Shown one piece after another: positions 414 to 9,205 of a stretch of DNA of 12,355 bases; the first letter of the stretch is position 1, and each line of letters starts with the position of its first letter. The translations under genes and the position numbers were made by a program. The notes under the pieces were generated by a model. That model had not been told where the DNA came from. It did not search any database and saw only the letters and a list, made by a program, of their open reading frames with translations. This stretch comes from Candidatus Altarchaeales archaeon WOR_SM1_86-2 (lineage in GTDB: Archaea; Altiarchaeota; Altiarchaeia; IMC4; MCBC01), in the NCBI GenBank assembly GCA_001723855.1, contig MCBC01000013.1:1-12355 (forward strand), given 5' to 3'.

Positions 414-617
414 ATGAAAACTACCGTTATCTTAGATGATGAATTGCATGCGTTTTTGATGGAAGAGGCAAAATCAAGGTATGGTTCGGCCAGGAAACTG
501 TCTGCCTTGCTGAACGAATTGGTCAGGGCTTATTTTTTAAAAAAGAAGGATCTTTTTGGCACAACAAAAAGGTTTGATATAAAAGATGCAAGGGATGAAA
601 GCGACCGTTTTGATTGA
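414..617 (+). CDS. Ribbon-helix-helix antitoxin, VapB/CopG-like
   Basis: This 67-residue protein has the layout of a ribbon-helix-helix DNA-binding antitoxin. It starts with a short beta strand (KTTVILD, residues 2-8), then helix 1 (about 9-21), a turn at YGSAR, and helix 2 (about 27-44, LSALLNELVRAYF). The C-terminal third is charged and probably disordered (KRFDIKDARDESDRFD), as expected of the part that wraps around a PIN toxin. The ATG at 414 is preceded by inverted repeats and the frame overlaps the downstream PIN gene by 23 nt, the usual coupling of vapBC pairs. Its expected role is to neutralise the toxin and repress the operon. The RHH fold is inferred from sequence pattern, and the family is divergent. 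Confidence 0.72.
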   Translation: MKTTVILDDELHAFLMEEAKSRYGSARKLSALLNELVRAYFLKKKDLFGTTKRFDIKDARDESDRFD

Positions 618-972
618 CTCTTATGCGTGGTTTGAGTATTTTTTTGGATCAACGAAGGGAAAGAAAGTAGCGGATATAATAAGGAGCGATTCAGAGGTTA
701 TAATCTCGCCCGTAAATTTGATAGAGGTGTACTCAAAGTATTTAAGGGAAATGCCGGACGAAGCCGAAGAGAAAAGGATTTTTATGCTGTCAAGAAGCAG
801 AGTGGTTCCCCTGGATACGAAAATATCGGGAAATGCATCAAAACTCAAGGTAAAACACAGATTGGGACTTGCGGATTCAATAATCCTATCCACCGCAAGG
901 GGCATAAATGCTAAAATAATAACCTGCGACCAGCATTTTAAAAACTTACCGGGGGTTATATTTTTAGAATAG
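595..972 (+). CDS. VapC-like PIN-domain ribonuclease toxin
   Basis: This is a single PIN domain of 125 residues, the usual VapC length. The acidic residues expected at the metal-dependent RNase site are visible: D8 (VLIDSYAW), E44 (NLIEVY), D94 (GLADSIIL) and D112 (ITCDQHF). The GLADSIILSTA segment is very typical of VapC toxins, which cleave tRNA or rRNA to arrest growth. I chose ATG 595 because it puts the first strand (MKATVLID) at the N-terminus as in the family. An in-frame ATG at 586 would add three residues and cannot be excluded. The gene overlaps the antitoxin frame and should be cotranscribed with it. No motif is missing, so it may be active. A T-rich stretch after the stop (981-995) could terminate transcription. 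Confidence 0.86.
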   Translation: MKATVLIDSYAWFEYFFGSTKGKKVADIIRSDSEVIISPVNLIEVYSKYLREMPDEAEEKRIFMLSRSRVVPLDTKISGNASKLKVKHRLGLADSIILSTARGINAKIITCDQHFKNLPGVIFLE

Positions 973-1009
973 AGGTTTATTTGCTTTTTTATTTTGAAGA
1001 AATAATAAT

Positions 1010-1315
1010 GTGATAATAGAACAAATGAAAAAAATTGAAGAAATAAAGGATATGCTGGCGGAGCATAAACATGAATTAAGGGAAGAATTTAAGGTTAAGG
1101 AGATGGGGGTTTTTGGCTCTTATGTGAGGGGGAAACAAAAAAAGACAAGTGATGTGGATATACTCGTAGATGTGGGACGCATAACCCTTCTTAAATTCAT
1201 TGAGTTGGAAAATTATCTCAGTGATCTAATTGGAGTTAAAGTAGATCTTATTATGAAAACCGCATTGAAACCAAGAATAGGAAAACATATATTGAAGGAG
1301 GTGAGATATATATGA
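1010..1315 (+). CDS. MNT-domain nucleotidyltransferase (MntA-like antitoxin of a HEPN/MNT pair)
   Basis: This 101-residue protein has the minimal nucleotidyltransferase signature GVFGSYVRGKQKKTSDVDIL: G36-S37, then R40-G41, then the metal-binding pair D48 and D50, with a third acidic residue probably D79 (VKVDLI). Proteins of this family pair with HEPN toxins and can silence them by AMPylating a tyrosine. The frame opens with GTG at 1010; an internal ATG at 1025 is an alternative start. The stop overlaps an ATG (ATGA, 1312-1315) preceded by a strong Shine-Dalgarno sequence at 1298-1304, exactly where the HEPN partner should begin, but that partner is truncated. The catalytic motif is intact, so this looks like an orphan antitoxin. 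Confidence 0.86.
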   Translation: MIIEQMKKIEEIKDMLAEHKHELREEFKVKEMGVFGSYVRGKQKKTSDVDILVDVGRITLLKFIELENYLSDLIGVKVDLIMKTALKPRIGKHILKEVRYI

Positions 1316-1380
1316 GGGATAACATAGAATTTTTGGATTACTACCAATTTATACTGTCTCTAATAAATCTCTACTCCTAA
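1312..1380 (+). pseudogene. 5' stump of a HEPN toxin gene (HepT-like), truncated
   Basis: A reading frame of 22 codons starts with an ATG that overlaps the MNT stop codon and has a near-perfect Shine-Dalgarno sequence (GGAGGTG, 1298-1304) 7 nt before it. It begins MRDNIEFLDY, resembling the start of HEPN partners of MNT proteins (typically MRD followed by a first helix). From about residue 11 the frame only reads through the antisense of the opposite-strand PIN gene, whose stop lies at 1349-1351. A real HEPN toxin is roughly 110-140 residues with an RxxxxxH motif, and none of that remains. The HEPN assignment rests on position and about ten residues. Confidence 0.5.
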
Positions 1381-1768
1381 CGATTTTGATGCTCCTAAAC
1401 TCCCCCAATTCCGACAAATGCTTATCTCCTGAAACAATGTACTGGGCAGAACTCGCAACAGCGCATTCAACGACTTTATTGTCATCAGGATCGTCTTTAA
1501 TTAGGTTAATTTTTTCATCCGGCTCAACAAATTCAGCCACTTCAAGTAACAATCCAATTGATCTTTTCTTTTGTTCATCCGTAAACTTGAGTCTCGGATA
1601 TTCAATAACCCTTTCAAGTTCTTTAAGCAAATCATAAGACATACACAACTTTATTTTGCCATCAATACAAAGATTAAATATCTTCCTCTCGTTTCCATCC
1701 CAACCAAAAGCAGAAATGAGAGTATTTGTATCCAGAACTACTCGCAGTGTTATTTTCTCCTTGCCCAT
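1349..1768 (-). CDS. PIN-domain toxin, COG1569-like
   Basis: This 139-residue PIN-domain protein resembles the COG1569 group of putative toxins rather than classical VapC. Likely active-site acids are D13 (VVLDTNTLISA), E50 (LLKELERV), D95/D96 in the motif DDPDDNKVVECA, and D115 (VSGDKHL). The DPDDNKVVECA motif is the hallmark that suggested this subgroup. Its start at 1768 lies inside the antitoxin gene (19-nt overlap), giving translational coupling. The expected role is a Mg-dependent RNase held inactive by the AbrB-type partner. The 3' end abuts the truncated HEPN gene on the other strand, suggesting the pair arrived by insertion or rearrangement. All key acids are present. Confidence 0.86.
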   Translation of the reverse strand: MGKEKITLRVVLDTNTLISAFGWDGNERKIFNLCIDGKIKLCMSYDLLKELERVIEYPRLKFTDEQKKRSIGLLLEVAEFVEPDEKINLIKDDPDDNKVVECAVASSAQYIVSGDKHLSELGEFRSIKIVRSRDLLETV

Positions 1769-2013
1769 TTTATCGCTTCTTCAACATCCTTTCTTTCAAT
1801 ACCCTCCTCTCTAAATTTCTTTTCAATTTCCCGAGATAAAGATTCAAATTCCTCTTTTGGGGAAGGAGTTTTAATTTGTTTAAACATGATGTAATCATCT
1901 CCTCCAATCGCAATGAACTTATTTTTTCCTTTAAGCCCTAATGCTTTTCGTATTGATCCCGGAACGATTACTTCGCCTTCATCCGACATTGTTACAACCT
2001 CTTCAGCAGCCAT
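1750..2013 (-). CDS. AbrB/MazE-type (SpoVT-AbrB fold) antitoxin
   Basis: The 87-residue product has the swapped-hairpin AbrB DNA-binding motif in its first half: VTMSDEGEVIVPGSIRKALGL (residues 7-27), then GKNKFIAIGGDDYIMFK. This is the form found in MazE-like antitoxins of archaeal PIN toxins. The C-terminal half (about 50-87) is charged and helical (EEFESLSREIEKKFREEGI) and is the likely toxin-binding tail. It overlaps the PIN gene by 19 nt. It probably binds its own promoter; a 9-bp inverted repeat lies at 2040-2063. The ATG at 2013 is the natural start because the fold begins a few residues later. Confidence 0.87.
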   Translation of the reverse strand: MAAEEVVTMSDEGEVIVPGSIRKALGLKGKNKFIAIGGDDYIMFKQIKTPSPKEEFESLSREIEKKFREEGIERKDVEEAIKWARRK

Positions 2014-2271: not shown

Positions 2272-3069
2272 TTAACATTCGTCAGTAGGTTCTATACATA
2301 ATTTCACTGTTATGTTTTGGGCGTAGTTATAACAATTCCAACATGTAACATTTATCTTTATTTCGCGATAGCCCTTAGTAACATCTTTCTCATCACCCAC
2401 ACACTCACCCCCCGAACACAAAGAACTTCCAACGCCAATTGGGGAAAAACTACAATTGTGTGCCAGATTTGATATGACAGTAGGCTTAGTCTCAATAACT
2501 CCATCATCGCTCCCCTTAAACATTATCCGACCGGTATTCATTTCTCCATAATTGCACACACGAATATTAATGTATTGCCCCCATCCGCTTTCTTCAACGA
2601 GGCGGGAATCATTAAAATGGAGTGTTTCATTACCATCGGTTTCAGCAACATAAAATTCTAAATTCGGCCCACGCATTTTTTTCTGATATTCCATCCAATC
2701 TTTATTTAAATTTACATTCTCATATGTAGCCCAAACCAAAAAACAAGTTGCAGCAAATAAAAAAATAGCTGCACCTGCTGAAATTAAGCTCGTGCGATAA
2801 GACCTGTTGCCAACTTCTATTTGTTGAATTTTGTCTTCTACTCTACAAAAAGCATCTCCAGCACCTCTCATAATTGAGAAATTTCTTTCATATGAAGTAG
2901 CAGGCTGAATTAGATCGTATTTCTTCAAAACTGGAAGTATTTCACTACTGAAGTCTTTATCTGTTTCTTCCTCTACCTTTTTTGTTTCAAATATTCTTTG
3001 GTCCTTTAATAAATAATATAATATTTCTCTCTCTTCCTTCAAAGAATTAATTGGAAAGGTTGACCACAT
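2272..3069 (-). CDS. Unrecognised single-pass membrane protein with Cys-rich exterior domain
   Basis: I do not recognise this 265-residue protein. Residues 1-90 are charged and helical (KEEREILYYLLKDQRIFE), possibly a winged-helix-like cytoplasmic part. A single membrane segment follows at about 95-116 (SLISAGAAIFLFAATCFLVW). The remaining 150 residues should lie outside: they contain eight cysteines (C172, C206, C218, C223, C243, C246, C258, C265) and five N-glycosylation sequons (N147, N153, N205, N240, N252), which suits an archaeal surface protein. The ATG at 3069 and the first eight codons (MWSTFPIN) lie inside a 39-bp inverted repeat, and an in-frame TGA occurs two codons upstream. No Shine-Dalgarno sequence is seen. 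The gene may have acquired this start by rearrangement; M67 is a fallback start. Confidence 0.62.
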   Translation of the reverse strand: MWSTFPINSLKEEREILYYLLKDQRIFETKKVEEETDKDFSSEILPVLKKYDLIQPATSYERNFSIMRGAGDAFCRVEDKIQQIEVGNRSYRTSLISAGAAIFLFAATCFLVWATYENVNLNKDWMEYQKKMRGPNLEFYVAETDGNETLHFNDSRLVEESGWGQYINIRVCNYGEMNTGRIMFKGSDDGVIETKPTVISNLAHNCSFSPIGVGSSLCSGGECVGDEKDVTKGYREIKINVTCWNCYNYAQNITVKLCIEPTDEC

Positions 3070-3136
3070 CGTTCACACTTTTTCCTGTAAATTCTCTGAA
3101 AAATTAGGTCGTGCACATCGTTCACACCTTTGTAAA

Positions 3137-3335: not shown

Positions 3336-3572
3336 ATTATAAACATATATAACTAAAAGTGTGAACGATGTCCTCGACCACCTAAATTGGAAAATGTGAA
3401 CGATGTCCTCACCCAAAAAAGTGTGAACGATGTCCTCGACCCTTCCAATTAATTGTTTCCTTTTTCATGGTTTAATTTGTAAAATTTTCTGAATTGAATA
3501 GGGTATGGCATTGACAATACAAAATTATGTTGTACCTTAAATAAGACGACTAAGAACCCAACTCACAAAAAT

Positions 3573-4052
3573 TCACCCCCTCTGCATTGCTGTCGTCCCG
3601 GTTCTTGCAATTTCCTTTATCCCGAAACCTTTCATCAGATCAATGAACGCCCCCATCTTATCGGCATCCCCGGTAATTTCAGCGGTCAGCGAGTCATGGG
3701 AAACATCAACGATCCTGCCCCTGAAGACATCGGTATACTGGATCATCTCTGACTTTTCCTTTTCCGTGGGAGTATTAACCTTTATCAGGCACAATTCCCT
3801 GCATACAGAGTTTTCCTTATCCAGATCGCTCACCCTTATCACATTAACCAGCTTATTCATCTGCTTTATGATCTGTTCTAAAACGCGGTCGTCCCCCATC
3901 GCGATAATCGTCATGCGGGCGATTTTCGGGTTATCCGTCTCCCCAACAGTAATATTTTCTATGTTAAAGCCCCTGCGGGCGAACATTGAAGATACCCTCT
4001 GTAAAACCCCCGGCTTGTGTTCAACCAGTGCCGTGATAATATGTGCTTTCAT
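3573..4052 (-). CDS. ilvN: Acetolactate synthase small (regulatory) subunit
   Basis: This 159-residue protein matches the full length of the regulatory subunit of acetohydroxyacid synthase, which activates the catalytic subunit and gives valine feedback control in branched-chain amino acid synthesis. An N-terminal ACT domain opens [20 protein letters not shown], then [18 protein letters not shown], a highly typical stretch. The C-terminal domain contains [16 protein letters not shown] and ends with the usual [14 protein letters not shown] tail. In most archaea it follows ilvB and precedes ilvC, but here neither is adjacent: upstream is a divergent transglutaminase-like gene, downstream the repeat element. 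A TATA-like box for this strand lies at about 4080-4091, predicting an almost leaderless mRNA. Confidence 0.95.
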
Positions 4053-6595: not shown

Positions 6596-8440
6596 ATGTC
6601 AAATATTTTGATCAAATTGGGGGGAAGCGTGATAACTGATAAGTACGGGGAGTGCAGGGTAAATGAAGATAATATAGAAAGAATCTGTAAGTTAATTTCA
6701 AGATTTAAGGCGAATAATCCGGACAGCGACCTCATTATTGTCCACGGTGCCGGTTCTTATGCGCACCCGATTATGGCAAAAGCTGAAGAAACCAGGGATT
6801 TAGAGTATGGGGATCTGATTAAGGTCAGGCAGCAGATGAGCCGCCTGCAGAGTATTATCCAGAAAGCTTTAGAGAAGGAAAATCTGAGCGTTGCGCCAGA
6901 AACCCTGCCCCTTTATCTTGAACCCAGGGGTTGGAAATACATGGTTGATGACTGGAAAAAATTATCCTCTATGGGGAAGGTACCTCTCTTACACGGGAAT
7001 CTTGTATTGACCGACGATGGCGGGGAAAAGATTGTAAAGATATCGGGGGATGATTTAATAAAGCAAATCGGGTTCAGATGGAAAATACCGATGATTGTTA
7101 TAGCTTCAAAACACCCTGTTTGCAGCAAAGACCCGGACAAGTTCCCGGATGCAAAGCCGATCAAAGATGTTACTCCCGCGGTATTTGAATCCATACGTGA
7201 TAATTTAACAATGCCAGGATACAGAGACACAACCGGGGCGATGCTGAGAAAGCTGGAGGTTTTAAAAGAATTGTCAAGAGCGGGTGCAAGCGCATATATC
7301 GTAACCCTCAAGGGCTTTGAAAATATTTTTTCTGATCCGGAAGCGGTGCTTGAGTCCGGAGAGGGGACGCGTATTATCATGTTCCCTGAGCTCCATAAAT
7401 TTAACTTCAGCACCGAAGGATTTATCTACTTCCTGGAAGAGGTTTTGGATGATAATTACATTACGGAGTTTCTAAAAGAGGGTGGGGGGCATGGTATATT
7501 AAAGAAGATATCAAGAGAGTTTAAATCTTCATGCATAGAATATCCAAAAAGGGGGGGCAAAGCACTGAGACCATTGATCCTGATTGCTTCTTATAGGGCG
7601 GTATCGGATAAAGAAAGCGGTAATCTAAGCCATGTCCTTCCGGCAATGGCTGCTGTAGAGTTCTTACATAATTTCTCATTGGTTCATGACGACCTTATGG
7701 ATGATGATGAGTTCAGGAGGGGACTTCCAGCACTGCATAAAATCTATGGCGAGGATATAGCGATACTCTCCGGGGACATTCTGTTGACCAAAGTTGTGGA
7801 CGCCATTCTAAAGTTAGATGTAGAACCTGAGAGGAAGGAATTGATATTGAATAAAATAACGAGAACCCTCACGGATTTAAGTGTGGGGCAGAGTATTGAT
7901 ATAGGCTTTGAACGGGAGTGGGATGTCAGTATCGGCGATTATATTGCGATGATCACGGGAAAAACCGCCAGATTATTTGAAACATGTGCAGAAGTTGGTG
8001 CTATTTTGGGCAACGGCTCAGAAAGTGAAATTAAAGCGCTCAGGGATTATGGTTTAGCCCTGGGCGTGGGTTTTCAGATGATAGATGATATTTTGGGCTT
8101 GATTGGAGACCCTGAAATGACAGGTAAGCCCGTTGGCTCTGATGTCCAGGAAAGGAAGAAAACCTACCCCATCATTTATGCCCTCTCTAAATTGGATGAT
8201 AAAACAAAAAATGAAATTTTCAGAACCCTTTACATAGAGTATGCGGACAAGGATGTGCCTCAAGAGAAACTGGATGAAATAACGGAGTTAATTGAAAATA
8301 CCGGGGCGATTAAAGAAACAAAGAAGGCAGCAAAAGAGTATATAGGGGAGGCGAAGGATGCGCTGAAGGTATTGAAAGAAAGTACCGCCAGGAAGGTATT
8401 GGAGCAAACGGCTGATTCTGCATACTACCGGCTTATATAA
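6596..8440 (+). CDS. Fusion: isopentenyl phosphate kinase + geranylgeranyl-diphosphate-synthase-type prenyltransferase
   Basis: One uninterrupted 614-codon frame encodes two complete enzymes. Residues 1 to about 262 are isopentenyl phosphate kinase (amino-acid kinase fold): LIKLGGSVITDK at the N-terminus, VHGAGSYAHP with the probable catalytic H57, KISGDDL (148-154), and DTTGAM (211-216). It makes IPP from isopentenyl phosphate. Residues about 271-614 are a trans-prenyltransferase: GGKALRP (320-326), first Asp-rich motif DDLMDDD (365-371), second motif DDILG (497-501), and K511 and K521-K522 before T523. Phe360, five residues before the first motif, matches archaeal type-I enzymes that stop at about C20. 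The product should feed ether lipids. The two genes are often neighbours in archaea; fusion is unusual. An internal ATG at 7379 could also start the second half. Confidence 0.93.
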   Translation: MSNILIKLGGSVITDKYGECRVNEDNIERICKLISRFKANNPDSDLIIVHGAGSYAHPIMAKAEETRDLEYGDLIKVRQQMSRLQSIIQKALEKENLSVAPETLPLYLEPRGWKYMVDDWKKLSSMGKVPLLHGNLVLTDDGGEKIVKISGDDLIKQIGFRWKIPMIVIASKHPVCSKDPDKFPDAKPIKDVTPAVFESIRDNLTMPGYRDTTGAMLRKLEVLKELSRAGASAYIVTLKGFENIFSDPEAVLESGEGTRIIMFPELHKFNFSTEGFIYFLEEVLDDNYITEFLKEGGGHGILKKISREFKSSCIEYPKRGGKALRPLILIASYRAVSDKESGNLSHVLPAMAAVEFLHNFSLVHDDLMDDDEFRRGLPALHKIYGEDIAILSGDILLTKVVDAILKLDVEPERKELILNKITRTLTDLSVGQSIDIGFEREWDVSIGDYIAMITGKTARLFETCAEVGAILGNGSESEIKALRDYGLALGVGFQMIDDILGLIGDPEMTGKPVGSDVQERKKTYPIIYALSKLDDKTKNEIFRTLYIEYADKDVPQEKLDEITELIENTGAIKETKKAAKEYIGEAKDALKVLKESTARKVLEQTADSAYYRLI

Positions 8441-8518
8441 TTTCCGATAGAAATATAGAAATCAAACAATACGACTATATTTGTATTTAGAAGCAAAGGA
8501 TAACAGTTTGTATTATAA

Positions 8519-8531
8519 TAAAAAAGAAAAA
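8519..8531 (-). terminator. Oligo-T terminator of the structured RNA
   Basis: Directly after the closing helix of the candidate RNA, the minus strand reads T5-C-T6. This is a strong archaeal-type termination signal and helps set both strand and 3' end. Confidence 0.55.
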
Positions 8532-8532
8532 G

Positions 8533-8828
8533 GATATGCTAAAGGGTCAAGCAGGGCGAACCACAGTGCATTATGCAGAGCACCGAAGCGCAAAGCACTC
8601 GCGACCCGAAGGTTTTGATTCATGCACCATCCACATCGAAACCCCACGGACAATTAATCAACCGAAGCTGACTAACCGCTTAGAGGCGAATTCTCCAGCA
8701 CACTCCACCACCCAATGGGCGCCTCACACCAGACCACCGAAGTGATTTGCTGCAAAACCGGTATGCGTCCCTATTACACACCGATGAAGTGTCTGTTCAA
8801 TGGGTTGCTTGAATTCCCCACATATCTA
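8533..8828 (-). ncRNA. Unassigned structured non-coding RNA, about 295 nt
   Basis: The segment is visibly richer in GC than its surroundings. A closing helix pairs 8533-8538 with 8821-8826 and 8547-8553 with 8806-8812. Read on the minus strand, four hairpins end in UUCG loops: 8650-8679 (13 pairs including G-U), 8733-8746 (5 pairs), 8580-8591 (4 pairs, inside the outer stem 8565-8569/8595-8599) and 8604-8613 (3 pairs). A further stem is 8683-8688/8720-8725, and a short hairpin is 8778-8792. A TATA-like box (8851-8862) and an oligo-T run (8519-8531) flank it at the right distances. I looked for the RNase P core (GAAAGTCC, ACAGAAA) and the SRP GGAAGG loop and found neither on either strand. The size fits those RNAs, so a divergent form is possible. 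Function unknown. Confidence 0.66.
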
Positions 8829-8850
8829 TAAGGATATATTAAACATTCAA

Positions 8851-8862
8851 GTATAAAAAACC
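8851..8862 (-). promoter_or_regulatory. TATA-like box for the structured RNA
   Basis: The minus strand reads GGTTTTTTATAC here, about 25 bp before the predicted 5' end near 8828-8831. A perfect 12-bp palindrome (GCATAATTATGC, 8896-8907), between two ATGCAT-containing repeats (about 8881-8891 and 8901-8910), lies about 35 bp further upstream and could be a regulator site. Confidence 0.45.
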
Positions 8863-8976
8863 GGAAGTTATATTCATCGATAATATGCATCCCAGGCATA
8901 ATTATGCATCAGGGTAATTTTTGGATTTACTTTTTAACCCGTTTATTATAGAATTTACATATAAAATTTTAACCGT

Positions 8977-9185: not shown

Positions 9186-9205
9186 GATAATACACGTATA
9201 ATGTG

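What the first reader, a model, noticed from the sequence alone, without database searches (positions are those of the whole stretch)
8519..8862. Large structured RNA of unknown class with its own promoter and terminator
Seen: a GC-richer island in AT-rich DNA, long-range complementarity closing its ends (8533-8538/8821-8826, 8547-8553/8806-8812), and four hairpins with UUCG loops all on the minus strand, one of 13 pairs. A TATA-like box lies about 25 bp before the predicted 5' end and T5-C-T6 just after the 3' end. Known: structured RNAs stand out by GC in AT-rich archaea, and UUCG is a favoured RNA tetraloop. Inference: a stable RNA of about 295 nt. The RNase P and SRP signature sequences I know are absent, so it could be a new class or a very divergent version of one of these.
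Basis: partly seen in the sequence, partly recalled or inferred. Interest (0 to 1): 0.75.

Follow-up and report, generated by a model that had tools for sequence, protein, structure and literature searches.

The report
Orphan structured RNA in an archaeon
A stretch of about 295 bases between two genes of a little-known archaeon very probably encodes a folded RNA that matches no catalogued RNA family; what it does is unknown and no convincing relative was found.

Summary
On the minus strand, 8533-8826 is a 51% G+C island between flanks of 23% and 29%. Its ends pair over 18 bp, and it carries four C(UUCG)G sequences, none on the other strand. Two of these cap hairpins of 13 and 15 pairs that the other strand does not form or forms weakly. 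Of 1051 CTTCGG sites in the nearest genome held, none has so good a stem; here 2 of 4 do. No Rfam family matches, even with relaxed filters, nor do profiles of RNase P and SRP RNA from the related phylum. The window is archaeal; its nearest named relative here is Altiarchaeales archaeon IMC4. No convincing relative of the RNA was found in 29 Altiarchaeota genomes or in two overlapping sets of 394 and 396 genomes. That negative has a control: 15 of 22 single RNase P RNAs find IMC4's RNase P gene by the method with which this RNA finds nothing. So it is most likely a lineage-restricted structured RNA with its own gene, probably an RNP scaffold. Covariation, transcript and function remain untested.

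The parts
8533..8826 (-). body of the predicted structured RNA (294 nt)
   Evidence: closed by 18 bp between its ends; z -2.80 on this strand against -0.27 on the other; no Rfam match
8851..8858 (-). TATA-like box TTTTATAC, about 25 nt before the outer helix
   Evidence: read from the sequence; consensus likeness only, not tested against chance
8834..8843 (-). alternative TATA-like box TTTAATATAT, which would start the RNA near 8812
   Evidence: read from the sequence; compare TTTATATA before the tRNA-Ile gene
8806..8826 (-). 5' half of the closing stem (7 + 4 + 7 bp)
   Evidence: pair probabilities 0.99, 0.88, 0.97
8533..8553 (-). 3' half of the closing stem
   Evidence: duplex matched by 2 of 5000 end shuffles
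8631..8804 (-). large branch A: CAUUGAA/UUCGAUG (8796-8802/8634-8640), ACACUUCAUC/GGUGGAGUGU (8783-8792/8700-8709), CGGUGUGU/GCAUACCG (8776-8783/8759-8766) and the two long hairpins
   Evidence: mean pair probabilities of these three helices 0.86, 0.95, 0.91; single-sequence fold only
8721..8758 (-). hairpin, 15 of 17 pairs, UUCG loop
   Evidence: -14.3 kcal/mol, z -2.75, against -4.5 for the opposite strand; score 12, reached by 0 of 1051 CTTCGG sites of IMC4
8650..8679 (-). hairpin, 13 of 13 pairs, UUCG loop
   Evidence: -13.4 kcal/mol, z -5.29, against 0 kcal/mol for the opposite strand; score 13
8554..8630 (-). branch B, two further C(UUCG)G sites, fold not settled
   Evidence: z -1.12, 23 of 200 shuffles fold as well (8563-8630); pair probabilities 0.27-0.45
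8520..8531 (-). T5-C-T6, probable oligo-T terminator
   Evidence: read from the sequence

Best explanation
The segment is an independent non-coding RNA gene on the minus strand. It is transcribed as about 295-305 nt from a TATA promoter and ends at an oligo-T tract. The RNA folds into a closed, multibranched structure with long UUCG-capped hairpins, and most likely works in trans as the scaffold of a small ribonucleoprotein. Shown: strand-specific structure far beyond chance in two hairpins and the closing stem, and no match to a known family. Inferred: transcription, boundaries, and the RNP role (from size, closed ends and capped hairpins, as in RNase P, SRP and other stable RNAs). It appears restricted to a sparsely sampled archaeal lineage whose nearest named relative here is Altiarchaeales archaeon IMC4.
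For: Four C(UUCG)G on one strand; 0 of 5000 shuffles reach four. Two UUCG hairpins score 12 and 13; 0 of 1051 CTTCGG sites of IMC4 reach 12. These hairpins largely or wholly vanish on the other strand; 24 of 109 predicted pairs are G-U. Closed ends. GC island and T tract. The longest start-to-stop frame inside it (69 aa, plus strand) gave no protein relative and no Pfam match. It lies between ipk-ggpps, whose stop is at 8440 and which runs towards it, and an arsR-like gene on the plus strand at 9203. Downstream on its own strand there are only a 37-aa stop-to-stop frame (8425-8538) and a 69-aa frame inside the ipk-ggpps gene (8054-8263), so an mRNA leader is unlikely. Rfam: nothing.
Against: Single sequence: no convincing homologue, no covariation, no transcript. 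Whole-fold z is only -2.8 for the exact 294 nt, and 5 of 800 shuffles fold as well. Branch B is poorly determined. The TATA box is weak and there are two candidates. Nothing points to a binding protein.
Confidence: 0.6

Rival explanations
1. A cis-acting antisense or terminator transcript: the RNA is made opposite the 3' end of the convergent ipk-ggpps mRNA and regulates its stability or termination, the structure serving mainly to stabilise it.
For: The T tract is only 80 bp from the ggpps stop codon at 8440. In 8441-8519 of the plus strand I read no run of more than three T, so the ggpps mRNA may run on into the RNA's complement.
Against: A 295-nt multibranched fold with closed ends is more than such a role needs. 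In IMC4 the ggpps gene is followed at once by another open frame in the same direction, by my reading, not by such an RNA.
Confidence: 0.12
2. A relic or non-autonomous copy of a mobile element (MITE-like), whose near-end inverted repeats and hairpins reflect DNA-level function.
For: AAGGATAT stands at 8530-8537 and 8830-8837, near both ends, so it could be a target duplication, and the ends contain inverted copies of TCAAGCA and GGG.
Against: The two hairpins depend on G-U pairs and fail or weaken on the other strand, which a DNA-level inverted repeat would not do. The outer inverted repeat uses bases of one of the supposed duplications. No second copy of the RNA body was listed in the window; the only repeats touching it overlap its 3' edge and T tract (D7, D8). 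No match in plasmids; in phages one 26-base match at E 0.1, on the T tract.
Confidence: 0.1
3. A very divergent or rearranged RNase P or SRP RNA of this lineage.
For: Size and closed ends fit. SRP RNA was not found in IMC4, the nearest genome held, so that lineage's SRP RNA is unknown.
Against: No match to any RNase P or SRP model at E up to 10 on the stretch alone. No match of the window to oriented profiles of 22 Altiarchaeota RNase P and 24 SRP RNAs, or to a single-sequence model of IMC4's RNase P. Recalled motifs (SRP helix 8, RNase P CR-I/CR-V) absent. IMC4 has an ordinary RNase P RNA.
Confidence: 0.05
4. A chance or decaying sequence without RNA function.
For: No convincing homologue; modest whole-fold z.
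Against: UUCG hairpin statistics, strand asymmetry, GC island, closed ends.
Confidence: 0.13

Closest known systems
Archaeal RNase P RNA (Rfam RF00373)
   Same: single gene, about 300 nt, ends paired, multibranched
   Different: no model or profile match; recalled CR-I/CR-V motifs absent; the IMC4 copy is a normal family member, 92.4 bits
Archaeal SRP RNA (Rfam RF01857)
   Same: about 275-300 nt, ends paired (recalled for the family)
   Different: no model or profile match; no helix 8 motif; in this fold the large branch comes first and the small one last, opposite to the order of SRP domains that I recall
Orphan structured non-coding RNAs found by comparative genomics (Weinberg et al. 2010, PMC2864571; passages shown)
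   Same: highly structured, lineage-restricted, some known only from environmental DNA or one organism, function unknown
   Different: those were found from alignments; this one rests on one sequence

Membership tests
Archaeal RNase P RNA | match to RF00373 or to a profile of phylum relatives | tested here: not met
   nothing (E up to 10); no window hit (E up to 20) with the profile of 22 oriented sequences, which finds IMC4's gene at E 1.3e-29
Archaeal RNase P RNA | CR-I and CR-V core motifs | tested here: not met
   recalled motifs searched on both strands of 8491-8870, none
Archaeal SRP RNA | match to SRP models or to a profile of phylum relatives | tested here: not met
   nothing; no window hit (E up to 20) with the profile of 24 oriented sequences. 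That profile finds no gene in IMC4 either, so it has no positive control in this lineage
Archaeal SRP RNA | helix 8 with AGCAGC | tested here: not met
   recalled motif absent on both strands of 8491-8870
Any family of Rfam 15 | score over the gathering cut-off | tested here: not met
   best on the stretch 8490-8870 is 18.4 bits on the plus strand against a cut-off of 42; the one minus-strand match (13.5 bits, cut-off 60) lies before the RNA
Structured non-coding RNA gene | strand-specific fold beyond chance | tested here: met
Structured non-coding RNA gene | covariation in homologues | tested here: inconclusive
   no convincing homologue found
Structured non-coding RNA gene | discrete transcript | not testable with these tools
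   no transcript data
Cis-regulatory leader / riboswitch | lies in the 5' region of a co-directional gene | tested here: not met
   downstream on the minus strand lies the convergent ipk-ggpps gene; only a 37-aa stop-to-stop frame at 8425-8538 and a 69-aa frame inside ipk-ggpps (8054-8263)
MITE-like mobile element | several copies in the genome | not testable with these tools
   no genome is held for the window; no second copy of the RNA body listed in the 12 kb

The most novel reading that the evidence does not exclude
A previously undescribed class of large trans-acting structured RNA, the scaffold of a ribonucleoprotein particular to an uncultured archaeal lineage near the Altiarchaeota.
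Probability: 0.4. Interest if true: 0.7.

Novelty: new member of a known kind. Interest (0 to 1): 0.45.

Why it matters
Large RNAs with elaborate folds are often RNP cores or catalysts, and few are known in archaea beyond rRNA, tRNA, RNase P, SRP and guide RNAs (recalled). A lineage-specific one would show that uncultured archaea carry RNA machinery that Rfam does not describe. If the window's own genome lacked a normal SRP RNA, it would also bear on how that particle changed.

Tried and rejected
RNase P and SRP identity, by Rfam, phylum profiles, a single-sequence RNase P model and motifs: rejected. Protein-coding reading of the 69-aa plus-strand frame 8536-8745: no relative, no Pfam match. 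Synteny in IMC4: ggpps is followed at once by another open frame, by my reading. UUCG-rich regions in IMC4: all 16 stretches with three or more CTTCGG per 320 nt (padded by 100) overlap ORFs of 90 aa or more. Ranking IMC4 intergenic regions by folding (617 of 674 jobs finished) gave mostly regions that fold well on both strands and no candidate that I could link to this RNA. Weak blastn hits in Altiarchaeota (26 of 29 genomes have one at E up to 1): many listed hits fall on the oligo-T tract; six other hits that I looked at, of 30 loci fetched, each lie inside at least one stop-to-stop frame of 50 aa or more. Two weak model hits (12.8 and 14.1 bits) were taken as chance and their surroundings not studied. 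SRP RNA missing from IMC4: the only trace (14.3 bits) lies in an open frame. My motif search found one SRP-type GTPase, which I read as FtsY, and no SRP54 in that gapped scaffold, so the absence may be assembly loss and nothing is built on it. Protein queries in viral contigs, to reach related contigs, gave none.

Sensitivity of the negative: a single-sequence covariance model of IMC4's RNase P finds 5 of 22 other Altiarchaeota RNase P genes, overlapping the place and strand listed, plus one 19-nt fragment in a sixth, and none of 3 genes from other archaea. So model R1's silence is weak evidence. Single-sequence nhmmer is a better control: 15 of 22 find IMC4's RNase P at E up to 0.01, while the RNA finds nothing up to E 10 and only five matches of E 26-47 at a limit of 50.

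Full report
What is there. The window is archaeal: it holds two short genes that I label rpoN and rpoK from recall (69% and 57% identical to frames of IMC4), tRNA-Ile, and a fused isopentenyl phosphate kinase / geranylgeranyl diphosphate synthase at 6596-8440. Its nearest named relative is Altiarchaeales archaeon IMC4: 53% identity over the synthase half (P0004, G783). That is not close. The 16 other genomes listed reach 41-45%, and no genome is held for the window itself.

The finding. Between the end of ipk-ggpps (8440, plus strand) and an arsR-like gene (9203, plus strand) lies a G+C-rich island, 8533-8826, 51.4% G+C between flanks of 22.8% and 29.0%. As minus-strand RNA its two ends pair over 7 + 4 + 7 bp. 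That duplex is equalled by 2 of 5000 shuffles of the ends and 7 of 3436 equally spaced segment pairs. Inside are four C(UUCG)G; 0 of 5000 shuffles reach four, and the plus strand of the stretch has none.

The strongest evidence is local. The hairpin 8650-8679 has 13 of 13 pairs and the hairpin 8721-8758 has 15 of 17, both around UUCG. I scored stems around every CTTCGG of the IMC4 scaffold: 0 of 1051 reach 12, while 2 of the 4 sites here do; the other two score 3 and 4. In the window as a whole, 7 hairpins with four-base loops score 11 or more on either strand; two are these, and none of the other five has a UUCG loop. One of the five lies in the promoter region, loop at 8831. Both hairpins depend on G-U pairs, so the opposite strand forms them weakly or not at all: -14.3 against -4.5, and -13.4 against 0 kcal/mol. 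This strand asymmetry argues for selection on a minus-strand RNA rather than a DNA palindrome. The whole-fold statistics are milder: z -3.49 with 306 nt (0 of 100), z -2.80 for the exact 294 nt (5 of 800); plus strand -0.75 and -0.27. The 3' part (8563-8630) is not well determined (z -1.12).

Not a known family. cmscan against all 4227 Rfam families found nothing in the region at E up to 10, first for the window. For the stretch 8490-8870 alone, where filters are laxer, four matches were listed, all far below their cut-offs (best 18.4 bits against 42, on the plus strand). RNase P and SRP were tested further. Among 29 Altiarchaeota genomes, 23 have an RNase P match below 1e-10, 16 over the cut-off, and 24 have SRP RNA over the cut-off. 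Profiles made from 22 and 24 of these, strands corrected, do not match the window; the RNase P profile finds IMC4's gene at 1.3e-29. The motifs of both RNAs that I recall are absent. IMC4 has RNase P RNA (92.4 bits), but no SRP RNA was found there with two models and a profile. The scaffold has many 100-base gaps and my motif search found no SRP54 gene, so this may be assembly loss.

Homologues. None convincing was found. blastn: 29 Altiarchaeota genomes (short hits at E 2.8e-4 or worse, many on the T tract), plasmids (none), phages (one 26-base match in two records of one phage, E 0.1). Exact 21-base patterns in viral contigs: none. Covariance model R1 of the 266-nt core: IMC4 scaffold, no match, only the window itself; 0 of 29 Altiarchaeota at E up to 10; 0 of 394 relatives of G783 at E up to 0.1; 2 of 396 relatives of G632 at E up to 0.5, with 12.8 and 14.1 bits, taken as chance. 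The genome sets overlap, and the two large ones used stricter filters. How much the silence means: the same kind of model made from IMC4's RNase P finds 5 of 22 other RNase P genes of the phylum, so R1 is not sensitive. But plain nhmmer with one RNase P sequence finds IMC4's gene in 15 of 22 trials, whereas this RNA finds nothing up to E 10. The RNA is therefore less conserved than RNase P at that distance, or absent from IMC4, or lost in its gaps.

How it most likely works. Shown: strand-specific hairpins and closed ends in a predicted multibranched fold. Inferred: an independent transcript from a TATA box (8858-8851) to the T tract (8531-8520), and a role in trans as an RNP scaffold. A leader role is unlikely because the next gene on that side is convergent, and the minus strand there has only a 37-aa stop-to-stop frame and a 69-aa frame inside ipk-ggpps. 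A cis role against the ggpps mRNA is possible and is given as a rival. A second TATA-like box (8843-8834) would start the RNA at about 8812 and drop the outer 11 bp.

Literature. Searches for Altiarchaeum with RNase P RNA and for Altiarchaeales with RNase P returned no paper. 'Altiarchaeum' with 'noncoding RNA' returned one paper on thermal-spring communities (listing and abstract start only). Broader searches were seen as listings only. Weinberg et al. 2010 (PMC2864571; passages shown) describes lineage-restricted structured RNAs, some known only from environmental DNA; this candidate is of that kind but rests on one sequence.

Verdict. It is not RNase P or SRP by any test made here. Whether it founds a new class cannot be decided without relatives.

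Noticed in passing
window 6596-8440: Isopentenyl phosphate kinase fused to geranylgeranyl diphosphate synthase in one 614-aa protein; one other full-length fused relative (P0003, 43%) and a partial one with both domains (P0002, 84%) in the protein search. IMC4 has the two as separate genes 5.3 kb apart.
   Followed up: partly
window 3041-3131 and 3355-3458: Five copies of a repeat of about 25 nt, two in one orientation and three in the other, with an outer inverted repeat of 43 nt at 88%, at the start of and upstream of an uncharacterised gene (2272-3069, minus strand), before ilvN (3573-4052).
   Followed up: no
window 414-2013: Cluster of toxin-antitoxin-like genes: two PIN-domain proteins and a MntA-like nucleotidyltransferase (43.5 bits, below the NCBIfam cut-off of 60), with two small ORFs (414-617, 1750-2013) that matched no family where scanned and are putative antitoxins by position only.
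   Followed up: no
G783 (IMC4), e.g. 312069-312289, 1030486-1030780, 629677-630069: Many intergenic regions of the IMC4 scaffold fold extremely well on both strands (z about -8 to -14 in these three, 20 shuffles each), as palindromic repeats would.
   Followed up: no
G783 (IMC4): No SRP RNA found with RF01857, RF00169 or a phylum profile, and no SRP54 by motif, in a scaffold with many gaps.
   Followed up: partly
window 8821-8843: The 5' strand of the outer closing helix can instead pair with sequence just upstream (hairpin with loop at 8831, score 12.5), overlapping the second TATA-like box.
   Followed up: no
window 1045-1056 and 8529-8540: The 12-mer AAAGGATATGCT occurs inside the MntA-like gene and at the 3' end of the RNA (within repeat D7); probably chance.
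   Followed up: no
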